Below, piece by piece: positions 20,484 through 58,387 of a stretch of DNA of 64,000 nucleotides (its first letter is position 1; the number at the start of each line of letters is the position of its first letter). The notes under the pieces were generated by a model. That model made no database searches. It had not been told where the DNA came from and saw nothing but the letters and a program-made list of their open reading frames with translations. Both the position numbers and the translations under genes were made by a program. The stretch covers positions 2,976,001 to 3,040,000 of the forward strand of contig NZ_CP048103.1 in the NCBI RefSeq assembly GCF_013282215.1. Direction: 5' to 3'. This DNA is from Kroppenstedtia eburnea. Lineage in GTDB: Bacteria > Bacillota > Bacilli > Thermoactinomycetales > DSM-45169.

Positions 20484-20778
20484 CAAGAAGTATTGTGATT
20501 TACTGCGTTTGGACGGTCGGGATTGGGTTTCACATGTCGTTTTCGTTGTTCTTCCGAGCCAAAGTCATTCCATGTGAAACCCAACCCTCCCTGCATAGCG
20601 AGACCGGGAACGGAGTGACCTAGGCGAGACTTGTGCTGGTGAGTGCATAGCGAGACCAGGGGCGGAAGCCCCCTGGCGAGACTTGTACTGGTGAGTGCAT
20701 AGCGTGACCAGGGAGCGAAGCGACCCCAGGCACGACTTGTGCCCTGTGGGTATGACGGCTTTTTCACAATGCTTCAAG
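20484..20778 (+). repeat. Miniature mobile element, copy A (three internal modules)
   Basis: The element spans 20488-20774 and is flanked by exact 4-bp direct repeats CAAG (20484-20487 and 20775-20778). Its ends are AAGTATTGTGA and TCACAATGCTT. Inside are the 13-bp inverted pair TGGGTTTCACATG/CATGTGAAACCCA (20524-20536, 20571-20583) and then three modules of about 52 bp starting TGCATAGCG at 20592, 20644 and 20696. It has no ORF of note. Other copies lie at 28414, 28445, 33098, 51383, 54225 and 58196. Confidence 0.85.
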
Positions 20779-25309: not shown

Positions 25310-26242
25310 ATGAGAAAAATGATGTTTTTCATTCTTGCCGCCGCTTTCGCCCTGGTGGTTGCCGGCTGTGGCCAAGACAACGCCTCCCCTGCCGCCGGCA
25401 AGCAAGACACCCTCACCGTCAAACATGAACTGGGCGAAACCAAGGTGAAGAAAAAACCTGAAAAAGTTGTGGTCTTTGACTTTGGTGTCCTGGACACACT
25501 GGATCAATGGGGAGTGAAAGTCACCGGGCTCCCCCAAGACAATCTCCCGAAATACCTATCCAAATTTAAAGGTGACAAATATGAAAATGTAGGTAGCCTG
25601 AAAGAACCCGATTTTGAAAAGATCCATGCAGCTCAGCCGGATTTGATCATCATCTCCGGCAGACAGGCAGATATGTACGATCAGTTCAAGGAGATCGCTC
25701 CGACCATCTACATGGGGGTCGACACCAGCCGGTACATGGACTCTTTCCGGGAAAATGTGAACCAGCTGGCCAAGATCTTCGACAAAGAATCGGAAGCCAA
25801 AAAAGAACTGGAAGCGATCGATAAAGATATCGACAAACTGAAAGAGAAAGCAAATGACGCCGGCAAAAACGCCTTGATCATCCTGGCAAACGATGGGAAA
25901 GTGAGCGCCTACGGAACAGGCTCACGCTTCGGCCTGATCCATGATGTCTTCGGCATCAAGCCCGTGGACAAAAACATCAAAGCTTCCACTCACGGCCAAA
26001 GCGTTTCCTTTGAATACATCGTCAAAAAAGATCCAGATTACCTCTTTGTCGTTGACAGAGGTGCTGTAGTCGGCGGCCAGTCCTCCGCCAAACAAGTGGT
26101 GGAAAACGATCTGGTCAAAGGAACCAAGGCATATAAAGAGAAACATATCATCTATCTGGATCCCGACTATTGGTATCTCTCCGGAGGCGGGCTGGTTTCC
26201 CTCAATGAAATGGTGAAACAAGTGGATCAGGCCCTGAAATAA
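25310..26242 (+). CDS. yclQ: Iron-siderophore (petrobactin-type) substrate-binding lipoprotein
   Basis: A 310-residue lipoprotein with lipobox VVAGC. It follows Bacillus YclQ closely: KVVVFDFGVLDTLDQWGV, LPKYLSKFKGDKYENVGSLK, PDLIIISGRQADMY, IKASTHGQSVSFEYI and YLSGGGLVSLNEM. YclQ binds ferric petrobactin and its precursors (known for Bacillus); the same ligand here is inference. It lies 84 bp after yclP with AAGAGGTGAAC before its ATG. A strong terminator follows, closing the operon. Confidence 0.92.
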   Translation: MRKMMFFILAAAFALVVAGCGQDNASPAAGKQDTLTVKHELGETKVKKKPEKVVVFDFGVLDTLDQWGVKVTGLPQDNLPKYLSKFKGDKYENVGSLKEPDFEKIHAAQPDLIIISGRQADMYDQFKEIAPTIYMGVDTSRYMDSFRENVNQLAKIFDKESEAKKELEAIDKDIDKLKEKANDAGKNALIILANDGKVSAYGTGSRFGLIHDVFGIKPVDKNIKASTHGQSVSFEYIVKKDPDYLFVVDRGAVVGGQSSAKQVVENDLVKGTKAYKEKHIIYLDPDYWYLSGGGLVSLNEMVKQVDQALK

Positions 26243-26339
26243 AAGTCGCGGACGGCGGCGTCGGATCCCTCACACAGCCGGTCCCCTCCGGCATCTGTAG
26301 CCGACCCTCGCTGTCGGTCCCACAGCATCTCCGAAAATC

Positions 26340-26374
26340 AGATAAGCGCCCCGGACTGGGGCGCTTATCTTTTT
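26340..26374. terminator. Terminator between yclQ and the OpuABC-like gene
   Basis: AGATAAGCGCCCC/GGGGCGCTTATCT perfect 13-bp stem, then TTTTTG on the plus strand. It can also serve the convergent minus-strand gene. Confidence 0.85.
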
Positions 26375-26431
26375 GTTCTATTCTTATCCTCGATATAGAA
26401 GGATCACAGGTGTCTCAGTATCATCACCGAT

Positions 26432-28142
26432 CTATTGGGTCCATTTTTTCACTTTGTCCTTGTTCTTCTCCACCCATGCCGCAGCCGCCTGTTCCGGTTC
26501 TTTTCCTTCTTGAATCATCAGCATCACTTCTTCCATATCCCCCGGGGTCCAATGGAATCGGTCCATGATTTGATAAGCTTCGGGGTTTTTCTCTTTCAGA
26601 TCTTTGCTGACAATGGTGTGGATCTCCTCCGACTGCCCAAACTCTTTTTTGGGATCATCGAGGAATTTCAGTTGGAAGCGGGCGAATTTCCAATGAGGCT
26701 GCCAGCCGGTAACGACGATGGGTTTCTTTTCTTTAACCGCCTTGGCGAGGGTTGAGGCCATGGCCGCACTGGAACTCTTCCACCAGCTCCATATCCAGAT
26801 CGTAATCTTTGATCAGCTTTTCCGTCTGCTTATTCATGTTGGCCCCCGCCTCGATCCCGATGATCTGGTGATCGAATTGGGCTGCATCCTTTTTCAGATC
26901 ATACACGGAGTTGGCTTTCACATATCGGGGAACGACCAGACCGAGCCGGGTTCCCTTCAGGTTGGGCCCCAGATCTTCCACTTGCCCTTTGTACTTTTCC
27001 ATGTAGTTTCGATGCTGAACGGGAAGCCATGCGGCCACGGTTCCATCTGCATCCCCACTGGCCACCCCCGCAAACATCGGCCCCACATCCACTTCCTGCA
27101 ACTTCACTTGAAAGCCTAGATCCTCCAGCACTTTCTTCAACACGTGGGTGCTGGCCACCTCGGAATCCCAGTTCACATAGGTCAGCGTAACTCTTTCCTT
27201 CCCCGTATCCTGCGATGTGAACAGAGTGGTGACCCCCACAGACGCAATGAGCAGGATAGCCAGCAAAAGCCACCCGCGCCGACTTCCTTTACCTTTGTGA
27301 CTTTTCACCTTTTGTCGCCCCTGACCCAAGCTCTGCGTGACACGGTCCAGGACGATGGCGATAATCACGATACAGAGACCGCCTTCAAACCCTCTGCCCA
27401 CTTCCAACCGGGTGATGGCCTGCAGAACCACTGTGCCCAATCCACCCGCCCCGATCATCGAGGCGATCACCACCATGGATAGTGAAAGCATAATCGTCTG
27501 GTTGATCCCCGCCATGATCGTGGGTTTGGCCAGAGGGAGTTGAACCTTGAACAGTTTTTGGGTCGACGTGGAACCAAAAGCGTCCGCAGCTTCGATCAGA
27601 TCTGCCGACACCTGCCGGATTCCGAGGCTGGTCAGACGGATCGTCGGCGGCATGGAGAAAATAATCGAGGCAATGATACCGGGAACCGCCCCCAGGGCAA
27701 AAAAGAAGACTGCCGGAATCAGGTAGACGAAGGCCGGCATCGTCTGCATGAAGTCCAGCACCGGCGTGATCAGGCTTTGAGATGACCGGTTACGGGCGGT
27801 CAAGATGCCGAGGGGCAACCCGATGACAATGGACAGCAATGTGGCAGTCAACACCAGGGCGATAGTTTCAACACTTGCATCCCAGTATCCGAGATTGTCG
27901 ATCAATAAACATCCGAGGAAAGTGAGCAGTGCGATGGAGAACCGACTGGCCAGATAGACGAGAACCGCCAATACCAGGGCTGTGATCACCGGCGGTGCCG
28001 CCGTCAACACAGACTGGAAGAATCCCACCATCGGTTCAATCAACGCGGTAATGATGGCAAACAACGGGGCAAGGTTCACTTGGAGCCAATCCACCACTCT
28101 GTCGACCCACTGATCGAGGGGGATCTTGGGAAGGCTCATCAT
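26432..28142 (-). pseudogene. OpuABC-like glycine betaine/proline betaine ABC permease-receptor fusion, frameshifted
   Basis: The minus strand encodes a permease domain (residues about 1-290; EAADAFGSTSTQKLFKVQLP is the ATPase-coupling loop) joined through a membrane anchor (GWLLLAILLIASVGVTTLF) to a betaine-binding domain (TYVNWDSEVASTHVLKKVLE, GVASGDADGTVAAWLPVQHR). Near 26772 the frame runs into EEFQCGHG and stops at once. In the next frame the sequence resumes as MASTLAKAVKEKKP, VVTGWQPHWKFARF and so on to 26432. Removing one base from the GAGTTCC run (minus strand) restores EESSAAMAS across the junction. The whole fusion would be about 568 residues, as in lactococcal OpuABC. No OpuAA-type ATPase is adjacent. 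Confidence 0.85.
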
Positions 28143-28282
28143 CCTTCACCCCGCTTCCGGCGGGGGTGGAGATCATTCACCAAGGGTGCATCCGTCATGA
28201 TTCTCCCCGGAACCCACTTCATTTCCATGGCCGGGGAAGGGTACGAACATCTGATGAGATCTTTCACTGTTGTTTCCTTCAA
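28139..28282 (-). CDS. 47-residue small ORF coupled to the OpuABC-like gene
   Basis: TTG start (28282) after AAAGGGGATTG, reading MKETTVKDLIRCSYPS, then WVPGRIMTDAPLVND and HPRRKRGEG. The stop overlaps the OpuABC-like start (ATGATGA). It occupies the place where the ATPase gene opuAA normally lies. It could be a remnant joining the two ends of a deleted opuAA or a separate leader peptide; I cannot tell which. Confidence 0.4.
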   Translation of the reverse strand: MKETTVKDLIRCSYPSPAMEMKWVPGRIMTDAPLVNDLHPRRKRGEG

Positions 28283-28298
28283 AACAATCCCCTTTCAG

Positions 28299-28312
28299 GC
28301 ATAATTTTATGC
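28299..28312. promoter_or_regulatory. Palindrome upstream of the OpuABC-like operon
   Basis: GCATAA-TT-TTATGC lies directly before the Shine-Dalgarno of the 47-codon ORF, where an operator would be expected. The minus strand also has TTGATG further upstream with TAAAAT inside the palindrome, but the spacing of 19 bp is poor. Confidence 0.35.
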
Positions 28313-28413
28313 AATCAGATTTATGAAACATCAACCATGGATATTTTAACATACATATTGTCCGGGATTTTCAAACACCCCCACCCCGATGGCGGTGCAT
28401 CGGGAACATACAC

Positions 28414-28898
28414 CCAGAAGCATTGTGAAAAAGCCGTCATACCCATAGAAGCGTTGTGAAAAACGCCATTCATACCCATAGGGCACAAGTCTCGCCAGGG
28501 TGCTTTCGCACCCGGTCTCGCTATGCAGGGAGGGTTGGATTTCACATGGAGTGACTTTGGCTCGGAAGAACAACGGAACGAAATGTGAAACCCAATCCCG
28601 ACCGCCTTAAAAGGCAATAAATCACAACGCTTATAGGGCACAAGTCGTGCCTAGGGTCAACTTCGCTCCCTGGTCTCGCTATGCACTCACCAGTACAAGT
28701 CTCGCCAGGGGGCTTCCGCCCCCGGTCTCACTATGCACTCACCAGCACAAGTCTCGCCTAGGTCACTCCGTTCCCGGTCTCGCTATGCAGGGAGGGTTGG
28801 GTTTTACATGGAATGACTTTGGCTCGGAAGAACAACGGAATGGAATGTGAAACCCAATCCCGACCGTCTTCTAACGCAGTTAATCACAACTCTTCCAG
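28414..28898 (-). repeat. Miniature mobile element, copy C (outer copy, three modules, interrupted by a nested copy)
   Basis: In the minus orientation, AAGCATTGTGA (28418-28428) and TCACAACTCTT (28884-28894) are the ends, flanked by exact CCAG repeats (28414-28417, 28895-28898). The body carries the 13-bp hairpin pair and three modules. A second copy is inserted at 28449-28632 between ATAG and ATAG; removing it rejoins ACCCATAG with GGCACAAG as in other copies. It ends 15 bp before the MarR operon -35. Confidence 0.85.
28445..28636 (-). repeat. Miniature mobile element, nested copy C1 (one module)
   Basis: A 184-bp element (28449-28632) with perfect 11-bp ends AAGCGTTGTGA/TCACAACGCTT. It is flanked on both sides by ATAG (28445-28448 and 28633-28636), the duplicated target inside outer copy C. 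It carries the hairpin pair and one module with a perfect GGGTGC-GAAA-GCACCC stem-loop. Confidence 0.88.
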
Positions 28899-28912
28899 AA
28901 TCAAAATGGATA

Positions 28913-28955
28913 TTGACAGGGAATCACCTCCCGCCATAAGATTAGGTTGCCTAAT
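28913..28955 (+). promoter_or_regulatory. Promoter and MarR-type operator of the exporter operon
   Basis: TTGACA (28913-28918), 18-bp spacer, TAAGAT (28937-28942). The perfect palindrome ATTAGGTTGCCTAAT (28941-28955) overlaps the -10, the normal place for autorepression by the MarR protein encoded next. Confidence 0.85.
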
Positions 28956-28986
28956 TATTTATCTGTCTGAGTAAAGGGTGGACTAG

Positions 28987-29496
28987 ATGGAAACGAAACT
29001 GAGCCCCACGGCACGGATGCTTTTAAAGTCATGGATGCAACTCAAGAAAATGGATTTGCATCCCCAATCCATCGCCGGTTATAAACCCAGCGAAGGCCGG
29101 TTGCTGTTTTGCATCAAATACGGAAAAAAGCCGGACTCCCCCGGCCCGACAGTAACGGACCTCAGCAAACTCCTCCATGTCACCTCTCCCACTGTCACGC
29201 AATTGATCAATGAGCTGGCAGGAAAAGGGTTGGTTCAACGAAATGTCGATCCGAAGGACCGGCGGGTGGTTCGGATCACACTCACCGAAACAGGAGAGCA
29301 AATCATCCAAAAGTTGGGAGACTCCCTGGCCGCCTCACTCAAGGGATTGATTGAGTATCTCGGAGAGGGAGAGAGCCGTCAGCTGGCTGAGCTTCTATCC
29401 AAAGTGGCTGTCTATCTCCAAGAACGGAATACCAACCCAAATCAATCTCTGCTCAGAGGGGAGGATGAAGGATGCTCCGATTGTTCCGATTTCTGA
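28987..29496 (+). CDS. MarR-family transcriptional regulator
   Basis: A 169-residue winged-helix repressor. The DNA-binding part reads TVTDLSKLLHVTSPTVTQLINELAGKGLVQR with the wing DPKDRRVVRITLTETG. Helices for dimerisation flank it. It ends with CSDCSDF, an unusual Cys-rich tail. It is the first gene of an operon with two ABC exporter halves and likely represses it through the palindrome over its promoter. Its 3' end overlaps the first exporter gene by 25 bp. Confidence 0.9.
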   Translation: METKLSPTARMLLKSWMQLKKMDLHPQSIAGYKPSEGRLLFCIKYGKKPDSPGPTVTDLSKLLHVTSPTVTQLINELAGKGLVQRNVDPKDRRVVRITLTETGEQIIQKLGDSLAASLKGLIEYLGEGESRQLAELLSKVAVYLQERNTNPNQSLLRGEDEGCSDCSDF

Positions 29497-33079: not shown

Positions 33080-33097
33080 AAAATATCTGGGCCGAGC

Positions 33098-33194
33098 CGG
33101 TCGGGATGGGGTTTCACATGTCGTTTTCGTTGCTGACGAGCCAAAATCACTCCATGTGAAACCCGACCCTCCCTCTGTTACTCTCACAACGTCT
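33098..33194 (+). repeat. Miniature mobile element, copy D (hairpin only)
   Basis: Contains GGTCGGGATGGGGTTTCACATG-type start (33099 on), the paired CATGTGAAACCC stretch and the right end TCACAACGTCT. No modules are present and the left end is not recognisable. It lies directly after the exporter operon and may act as its 3' hairpin. Confidence 0.75.
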
Positions 33195-42080: not shown

Positions 42081-42262
42081 AAAAACCCCCTCAGGATTGA
42101 GAGGGGGTGACCGCGACGGGGATAAACCGCCGGAATTCATCCCACTCCTTATCTCTCAACGCCTGGGCGTTGCAGGATTTGGCACCTTGCCTGCGAACAT
42201 GCGCAGGCGGGTTGCCGGGTTTCATCGGGCCAGTCCCTCCACCACTCTGGATAACGAGTAGA
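42081..42262 (-). ncRNA. SAM-I (S-box) riboswitch with terminator, upstream of hom
   Basis: The minus strand carries the S-box consensus in order: TTATCCAGAGTGGTGGAGGG, then CTGGCCCGATGAAACCCGGC, a variable hairpin (GCCTGCGCATGTTCGCAGGC), AGGTGCCAAATCC, and the closing GAGAGATAAGGAG that pairs back to the start. The aptamer spans about 42144-42262. It is followed by an expression-platform terminator, CCCCCTC/GAGGGGG with a T run, at 42081-42108. High SAM should favour termination before hom. Confidence 0.95.
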
Positions 42263-44557: not shown

Positions 44558-44572
44558 AATATTCCTCCTTAT

Positions 44573-44678
44573 AGCCTCCGAGGTTAGTTGACGGGTTCAG
44601 GATAAGGAGTTCCCGGCCGCACAGCGGCTTCACCCCAAAACAAATATAGTCCCCCGTACCTGAAGTCAGGATTCGGCT
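44573..44678 (-). ncRNA. c-di-AMP (ydaO/yuaA) riboswitch upstream of the SleB-type gene
   Basis: The minus strand follows the ydaO consensus in order: CGAATCCTGACTTCAGGTAC, GGGGGACTATATTTGTTTTG, GGGTGAAGCCGC, GGGAACTCCTTATCCTGAAC, CCGTCAACTAACCTCGGAGG. The closing AGCC/GGCT helix ends only four bases before the Shine-Dalgarno of the downstream gene. No terminator lies between, so control by masking the ribosome site is possible. ydaO RNAs bind c-di-AMP and commonly control wall hydrolases and osmolyte or potassium transport (established). Confidence 0.95.
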
Positions 44679-44697
44679 TGATTTACATACATTAGGA

Positions 44698-51382: not shown

Positions 51383-51520
51383 CTGGAATCGTTGTGATTT
51401 ATGCGTTCAAGGCCGGTCGGGATTGGGTTTCACATGTCGTTTTCGTTGTTCTGACGATCCAAAATCACTCCATGTGAAACCCACCCCTCCCTTTCAGAGA
51501 CTGTTTCGCAACGCTTCCAG
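51383..51520 (+). repeat. Miniature mobile element, copy E (hairpin only)
   Basis: Ends AATCGTTGTGA (51387 on) and TCGCAACGCTT (to 51516), with the TGGGTTTCACATG/CATGTGAAACCCA pair inside and no modules. The flanks CTGG and CCAG are complementary rather than direct repeats. It ends 8 bp after the pilO stop (opposite strand) and could supply the 3' hairpin of the pilMNO transcript. Confidence 0.8.
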
Positions 51521-54062: not shown

Positions 54063-54766
54063 CTCTTAAGTCTTTGATACCCAAGGGAGAAATCCTTTTC
54101 TTCCATTCGTGTTTTTCATATAAAAGAGCAGATTAGTTCTTCCCGGCTAAGCCTTTCAATATATCCCGCCTCAGGCGTGTAGATTAGCCATATTTTGGGT
54201 GGGAGATCGTGTTCTACCACGCGACCGTTGCACCCATAGGGTACAAGTCGCGCCTGGGGTCGTTCCTCCCCGGTCGCGCTATGCCATTCCAGCAAGGAAG
54301 TAACGACTGGCCGCTCCGAATCTTCCGATCGGGCAGGGGCAAAGCCTTACGGAAGCAACACAGGGAAGATTGTTGCCCCTAAACGCCCTCCCTCCAGATT
54401 CTCCGCTGGGTAGGATGGCAACCTTCATCCCTGGGCTTCAGCCCATCTGGACTGTAGTGCCTGTGGTGCAAAGGTCGCTATGGCAGCACACGACTCCCTT
54501 CCACCGCCCACTTTCTGGTTTAATCAACAGCCCTGATCCCGCCTCCCTTTTTTCCATCAACTCCCTCAATCCGTGAACCCCGCGTCAATTCAGGGATTTC
54601 CTTTGTGAATATGTAAACAGAAGCCCCGATACGGGAGAAGGCGTGCGAAGGAAAAAGGCGGGGATTTACCCGGAAAAACAACCTTTTTCCACCCCTAATT
54701 CATCTACCCCGGTGATATCTTCCTAGATATGATGATGATAGGATAAACAACCAAATTCGGTGACGG
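54063..54766. other. 700-bp gap without a supported gene
   Basis: The stretch between pilM and the L,D-transpeptidase gene holds a diverged copy of the miniature-element module (54225-54290), a loose inverted repeat GGGGCAA...TTGCCCC (about 54335-54380), and some short open frames without start signals. It looks like decayed DNA. Confidence 0.5.
54225..54290 (-). repeat. Miniature mobile element, diverged single module (copy F)
   Basis: Minus strand: GCATAGCGCGACCGGGG, loop, CCCCAGGCGCGACTTGTACC, CTATGGGTGCAACG. This matches one internal module of the family, but the terminal repeats and the 13-bp hairpin are gone. The outer base pairs are changed in a compensated way (GCGCG with CGCGC). Confidence 0.65.
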
Positions 54767-58195: not shown

Positions 58196-58387
58196 CTGGA
58201 AGTATTGTGATTTACTGCGTTCTTCGACGGTCGGGATTGGGTTTCACATGTCGTTTTCGTTGTTCTTACGATCCAAAATCACTCCATGTGAAACCCAACC
58301 CTCCCTGCATAGCGAGACCGGGAACGGAGTGACCCTGGGCACGACTTGTGCCCTGTGGGTATGACGACTTTTTCATAATGCTTCTGG
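58196..58387 (+). repeat. Miniature mobile element, copy B (one module)
   Basis: A 184-bp element (58200-58383) with ends AAGTATTGTGA and TCATAATGCTT, flanked by exact CTGG repeats (58196-58199, 58384-58387). It carries the hairpin pair and one module that joins the left half of module 1 of copy A to the right half of module 3. It sits 50 bp before the nadC start, between a broken flavoprotein ORF and nadC. Confidence 0.88.

What the first reader, a model, noticed from the sequence alone, without database searches (positions are those of the whole stretch)
28414..28898. One element nested inside another with its own ATAG duplication
The 184-bp copy at 28449-28632 has perfect 11-bp ends and sits between ATAG and ATAG. 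Deleting it and one ATAG rejoins ACCCATAG to GGCACAAG exactly as in uninterrupted copies. The outer copy is itself bounded by CCAG repeats. This gives direct evidence that the element moves and an order of insertion.
Basis: seen in the sequence. Interest (0 to 1): 0.75.

Follow-up and report, generated by a model that had tools for sequence, protein, structure and literature searches.

The report
Jumping DNA repeat nested inside another
A short piece of parasitic DNA with no genes of its own, present in roughly 220 copies in this bacterium, has inserted into an older copy of itself; this is a clear but ordinary trace of past transposition.

Summary
A 184-bp element (28449-28632) with perfect 11-bp inverted ends sits between ATAG copies inside an older copy (28418-28894) bounded by CCAG. 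Without the insert and one ATAG, the outer copy is 289 bp, the length of intact three-B copies elsewhere in the genome. The genome is a Kroppenstedtia relative (congener: K. guangzhouensis). The element is a non-autonomous MITE of roughly 220 copies with modular build A-B(0-7)-C, resembling pneumococcal BOX. Insertion duplicates 4 bp, most often CTAG, a word about 35-fold depleted in this DNA. Degenerate IS1182-family transposons in two relatives carry the same ends and CTAG flanks, so an IS1182-type transposase is the likely mover; none was found in this genome. Two other sites compared with the congener show filled and empty states. The nested locus itself could not be compared, because a 3.2-kb block containing it is absent there. 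Several copies abut and share one CTAG, which the target preference can explain. The C hairpin shows compensatory changes and also occurs in repeats with other ends. The nested insertion is ordinary; the family is a new member of a known kind.

The parts
28414..28417 (.). CCAG, left target duplication of the outer copy
   Evidence: read directly
28418..28448 (+). outer copy, left part: end AAGCATTGTGA (28418-28428), A module up to and including ATAG
28445..28448 (.). ATAG, left copy of the inner duplication (native sequence of the A/B junction)
28449..28632 (+). inner copy, 184 bp, architecture A-B-C, ends AAGCGTTGTGA / TCACAACGCTT
28478..28528 (+). B module of the inner copy (boundaries approximate)
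28529..28632 (+). C module of the inner copy: conserved hairpin and right end
28633..28636 (.). ATAG, right copy of the inner duplication
28633..28790 (+). outer copy resumes: three B modules (boundaries approximate)
28791..28894 (+). C module of the outer copy, ending TCACAACTCTT (28884-28894)
28895..28898 (.). CCAG, right target duplication of the outer copy
20488..20774 (-). another copy, A-BBB-C, 287 bp, CTTG on both sides
51387..51516 (-). another copy, A-C without B, absent at the orthologous place in G001
58200..58383 (-). another copy, A-B-C, 184 bp, CCAG on both sides

Best explanation
A miniature inverted-repeat transposable element (MITE) without genes inserted at ATAG inside an older copy of itself. 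Shown: inverted ends, 4-bp duplication, exact rejoining, a family of roughly 220 copies, target preference for CTAG-like words, and filled/empty sites against a congener. Inferred: an IS1182-family DDE transposase bound the AAGCGTTGTGA ends, cut the element out and joined it to a staggered 4-bp cut; the gap was filled, giving the duplication. The cognate transposase is known here only as broken copies in two relatives, so the family is probably no longer moving in this genome. Since CTAG is very rare and each copy brings its own CTAG flanks and an internal ATAG, copies tend to land beside or, here, inside each other.
For: Junctions and consensus; lengths of uninterrupted copies; end counts against control. 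TSDs: 19 of 30 identical, 38 of 71, 21 of those 38 being CTAG although CTAG occurs 56 times in 515,970 four-base positions outside elements, 0.03 of expectation. Empty/filled: a single TTAG in G000 against TTGG-element-TTAG in G001 beside window 42281; window 51387-51516 absent in G001. Mobiliser: of 32 transposase loci examined 2 carry the ends with at most 1 mismatch, L101 in G001 and L112 in G007. The L101 element spans 1462 bases including the CTAG on each side, and its 5' end resembles the A module over about 25 bp. Its broken frames match the IS1182 model NF033551. At least 6 abutting pairs share one CTAG.
Against: No intact cognate transposase was found: none in G000 with an N-terminal query (only a 23%-identity hit) or a longer C-terminal query (none), and 2 of 398 class genomes at E 1e-42. 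The IS fragments scored below NF033551's full-length cut-off of 270 bits, as fragments must. The inner copy's nearest relative among 30 copies is 91.8% identical, so the event is not recent. The nested locus has no empty counterpart in G001. The outer CCAG duplication is not CTAG.
Confidence: 0.88

Rival explanations
1. The compound arose by unequal recombination or gene conversion between neighbouring copies rather than by insertion.
For: B units vary from 0 to 7, so recombination within the family does occur, and copies often abut.
Against: Recombination would join homologous positions. Here a complete inner element, with both ends, interrupts an otherwise continuous outer element at one point and is flanked by two ATAG; the outer copy without it is 289 bp, like intact three-B copies.
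Confidence: 0.04
2. The elements replace inverted-repeat targets, as proposed for IS1272 of the IS1182 family (PMC5678879), and the ATAG/CTAG flanks are part of the element.
For: The mobiliser relics belong to the IS1182 family; the preferred target CTAG is palindromic and the nested target lies in CCCATAGGG.
Against: Flanks vary between copies (CTAG, TTAG, CAAG, ATAG, CTAT, CTTG, TTAA, CCAG, ACAG) yet match left to right in 38 of 71. In the clean G000/G001 comparison one TTAG becomes two with the flanking sequence kept.
Confidence: 0.03
3. The mover is not IS1182 but another transposase that shares 11-bp ends by chance.
For: No intact cognate IS1182 was found anywhere searched.
Against: Both ends of the G001 relic and fragments in G007 have these or closely similar ends with CTAG next to them, and similarity to the A module extends beyond the 11 bp. 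The two PF01609 transposases of G000 lack the ends at up to 1 mismatch.
Confidence: 0.08

Closest known systems
IS1182-family MITEs, e.g. the ISMac2-related MITE of Methanosarcina acetivorans (PMC3852290, passages seen)
   Same: short non-autonomous element attributed to an IS1182 partner; 160 bp, 14 copies; the table row ends 26 and 4, which I read as inverted-repeat length 26 and direct repeat 4
   Different: here 11-bp ends, far more copies, variable internal modules, CTAG preference; sequence relationship not tested
BOX elements of Streptococcus pneumoniae (PMC3049150, abstract and sections 3 and 5 seen)
   Same: composite A-B(n)-C repeat with inverted ends and target duplication; B variable in number; predicted stem-loops; over 100 copies
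   Different: different host group; BOX ends were likened to ISSpn2 in that paper, these to IS1182; no sequence comparison was made here, so only the architecture is alike
IS1182-family insertion sequences, e.g. ISPse1 of Paracoccus (PMC3281130, passages seen)
   Same: 4-bp direct repeats recorded for ISPse1; IS1182 transposase
   Different: autonomous, 1653 bp; the present element encodes no transposase
IS1272 of Staphylococcus (PMC5678879, passages seen)
   Same: placed in the IS1182 family in that paper; palindromic targets
   Different: the authors report no TSD for their newly inserted copies and replacement of the target inverted repeat; here 4-bp duplication

Membership tests
MITE | short, with terminal inverted repeats | tested here: met
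   184 bp, perfect 11-bp ends in the inner copy
MITE | target site duplication | tested here: met
   4 bp; 19 of 30 and 38 of 71 identical; single TTAG in the empty site
MITE | no transposase gene, ends shared with an autonomous partner | tested here: met
   too short to encode one; ends shared with IS1182-family relics in G001 and G007; partner not intact
MITE | multiple dispersed copies | tested here: met
   about 220 estimated from end counts minus control
IS1182-mobilised element | transposase of the family acts on the ends | not testable with these tools
   needs a transposition or binding assay
IS1182-mobilised element | partner is an IS1182 transposase | tested here: inconclusive
   NF033551 is the best model for all 5 fragments, but fragments cannot reach the full-length cut-off
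BOX-like composite repeat | A and C modules with a variable number of tandem B modules | tested here: met
   0 to 7 B units among the groups of the sample
BOX (pneumococcal family itself) | sequence homology to BOX modules | not tested
   no BOX sequence was fetched; Rfam gave no match at E up to 1 in 28380-28940
IS1272-type IR-replacing element | target inverted repeat lost, no TSD | tested here: not met
   TSDs present; flanking sequence kept at the clean empty site

The most novel reading that the evidence does not exclude
The B and C hairpin cores are structured cassettes shared between small mobile elements with unrelated ends: C occurs in A-C, A-B-C and GGGCGTGTCTG-ended elements, B also in other repeats and in arrays of other genera. 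Selection keeps the C stem, perhaps as RNA or single-stranded DNA, so successive transposases carry the same cores. Scarcity of CTAG then drives the copies into and beside each other.
Probability: 0.2. Interest if true: 0.55.

Novelty: new member of a known kind. Interest (0 to 1): 0.33.

Why it matters
It gives a relative order for two insertions, identifies a likely mover (IS1182-type) for an abundant repeat family of Kroppenstedtia and relatives, and shows how a target word that the genome nearly lacks can produce abutting and nested copies. BOX-like architecture outside streptococci would allow comparison of why variable tandem hairpin modules arise in small repeats.

Tried and rejected
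Orthologous comparison of the nested locus: the MarR neighbour has no match in G001 at E 1e-10; of 9 genomes only G002 (54% identity) and G007 (36%) match. The block 26232-29428 is missing in G001, so the locus says nothing there. The 184-bp remainder in G001 looks to me like an IS200/IS605-type remnant; that label is recalled, not tested.

Own-genome transposases: 2 PF01609 loci in G000, neither with the ends at up to 1 mismatch. PF01609 in nine relatives: 30 loci fetched of 41 listed matches; 2 of the 32 loci examined (30 plus the 2 of G000) have the ends. Of 13 further loci of the IS1182-like search, the ends with no mismatch appear in 2, which are the same two elements again.

A second nested insertion at the internal ATAG: pattern search of 10 genomes gave 9 matches in G000 and 4 in G009; only the present locus is exact. 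I inspected three others: L138 is an abutting pair sharing CTAG, L140 a truncated copy, L137 another repeat; the remaining matches were not inspected.

RNA structure on 30 near-identical copies: almost no covariation, uninformative; the diverse C set of 25 representatives, drawn at under 92% similarity from 150 kept hits, gave a signal. Rfam: no hit in the region. Empty-site comparisons 3 and 4 were too diverged to call. Shared C core in GGGCGTGTCTG-ended elements: 8 of 43 A-less groups show both motifs, of which one (572267, 45 bp) is not credible; either motif also lies near 16 of 72 A-containing groups, so the count is soft.

Papers: searches. Kroppenstedtia with transposable: 0 papers. Thermoactinomycetaceae with MITE: 4 papers, by title and abstract start unrelated. 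MITE with nested insertion, bacterial genome and target site duplication: 0. IS1182 with CTAG: 2 papers, not opened. None of these listings showed this family described; the library is open-access only.

Full report
WHAT IS THERE. The inner copy 28449-28632 has perfect 11-bp inverted ends and lies between ATAG 28445-28448 and ATAG 28633-28636; the outer copy 28418-28894 lies between CCAG 28414-28417 and CCAG 28895-28898. The outer copy without insert and one ATAG is 289 bp. Other three-B copies of the genome are 289, 289 and 287 bp (929883, 3340854, 2996488). The A/B junction of 30 full-length copies reads CCCATAGGGCAC in the consensus without interruption, as does the rejoined outer copy.

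WHERE. The window is G000:C1:2976001-3040000 of a 3.56-Mb genome. The same-genus genome G001 is, by inference, Kroppenstedtia guangzhouensis CGMCC 1.12404: its contig C29 has the length, 17,919, of NZ_BMEX01000029.1, and one of two 60-base probes from it lies in the held part of that record (the other probe starts one base outside that part). The species of the window itself is not named by any search. The nested element lies between a gene for a glycine-betaine-type transporter read leftwards (26733-28142) and a MarR-type regulator read rightwards (28987-29496), so in the divergent spacer. A promoter-like match at 28913-28942 begins 15 bases after the outer right duplication; such matches are expected by chance too (2 found, mean 0.9 in shuffles).

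THE FAMILY. A search with the inner copy gave 49 places in G000, though only 40 of 401 first-look candidates were scored, so this is a lower bound. The 11-bp end with up to 1 mismatch occurs 515 times against 69 for the reversed pattern, which I read as about 220 two-ended elements. In 548,826 bases of G000, a sample biased towards elements, module profiles gave 118 groups with architectures from A-C through A-B-C to A with seven B and C. Among 61 genomes, 10 had a match to the query at E 1e-5: full-length or C-type in G000, G001, G007, mainly the B unit in G003, G004, G006, G008, G009 and one in G054, and a weak C-like match in G002.

TARGETS. Of 71 groups with both ends, 38 have identical 4-bp flanks: CTAG 21, TTAG 3, CAAG 3, ATAG 2, CTAT 2, CTTG 2, TTAA 2, CCAG 2, ACAG 1 (best-flank choice disclosed above). 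The other 33 differ at 1 (15), 2 (12), 3 (5) or 4 (1) positions. CTAG occurs 56 times in 515,970 positions outside elements, expectation 1987. Thus insertion strongly favours a word that the genome nearly lacks. In the biased sample 99 of 155 CTAG lie in or within 60 bases of elements. Six abutting pairs share one CTAG (493738, 1135308, 1686125, 1732684, 3470422, 1749956; the first and third judged from ends only) and one more pair at 1693418 has an extra base. This can account for compounding without a special mechanism. I did not compute the number of abutting pairs expected.

MOBILITY. G001 aligns to the window at roughly 80-93% over most of the compared region, with one piece at 72%. Beside window 42281, G000 has one TTAG where G001 has TTGG, an A-C-type element, and TTAG: a clean empty and filled pair. 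Window 51387-51516 is filled in G000 and absent in G001, but the flanks are diverged, so the exact duplication there (CTGG left, CCAG right) cannot be traced. The nested locus has no counterpart in G001.

MOVER. Among 32 transposase loci, two have the ends with at most 1 mismatch. L101 (G001) is a broken element with CTAG on both sides; one end reads CTAGAAGCGTTGTGA and the other CTAGAATTGTGAAAAAGTCATTCAT, the latter close to the A module's AAGCRTTGTGAAAAAGCCATTCAT. L112 (G007) begins CTAGAAGCGTTGTGAAAAAGTC and is also broken; an inverted fragment of what looks by eye like the other end lies downstream. All five translated pieces have NF033551, IS1182 family transposase, as best NCBIfam model. 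G000 has no close homologue by either query. Hence the step from IS1182 to the MITE is inferred from ends, target and family.

STRUCTURE OF THE CORE. In 25 diverse C cores, 93.3% of cells of an 18-pair stem are paired; 7 pairs have changes on both sides, against 2.8 in shuffles (2 of 500 as high) and 2 to 4 in slid controls. Shuffles ignore relatedness and the stem was drawn from the family, so this is moderate support for a maintained hairpin. One of the 25 (L079) lacks part of the arm and was kept. Within 30 close copies there is almost no covariation.

KNOWN OR NEW. IS1182-type MITEs with 4-bp repeats and the handling of nested elements (PMC3852290, passages seen), 4-bp repeats in an IS1182 element (PMC3281130) and composite BOX repeats (PMC3049150) are all described. 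The Kroppenstedtia family was not found in print in the searches listed under Tried and rejected. I file it as a new member of a known kind. The open and more interesting question is the sharing of B and C cores among repeats with different ends, for which the evidence is suggestive only.

Noticed in passing
window 33095-33194 and G000 places such as 485743, 943306, 2950818, 3339494: The C hairpin core also lies in repeats of about 156-172 bp with ends GGGCGTGTCTG / CAGACACGCCC, often next to TA, i.e. ends unrelated to AAGCGTTGTGA.
   Followed up: partly
window 54232-54284; G000 368697, 3030236, 1704296; L050-L055: The B unit occurs alone in other small repeats and in tandem arrays in other genera of the family, and once in what looks like a spacer between tRNA genes in G054 (tRNA reading is mine, not run).
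   Followed up: partly
G000 sample, 515,970 positions outside elements: CTAG is about 35-fold under-represented; imperfect duplications show CTGG on the left with CCAG on the right in 5 of 71 groups and never the reverse, which hints at directional decay of CTAG next to the element ends.
   Followed up: partly
G001:C23, place corresponding to window 33095-33194: Both species carry a small repeat in the same spacer, but of different type: an AAGCGTTATGA-ended A-C element in G001, the GGGCGTGTCTG-like type in G000.
   Followed up: no
window 42146-42257 and 44558-44688: SAM and c-di-AMP riboswitches on the minus strand; in G001 a MITE copy sits about 25 bp upstream of the 5' end of the SAM riboswitch.
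   Followed up: no
window 26232-29428 against G001:C23: A 3.2-kb block with the transporter gene, nested element and most of the MarR gene is present here and replaced by about 184 bp in G001.
   Followed up: partly
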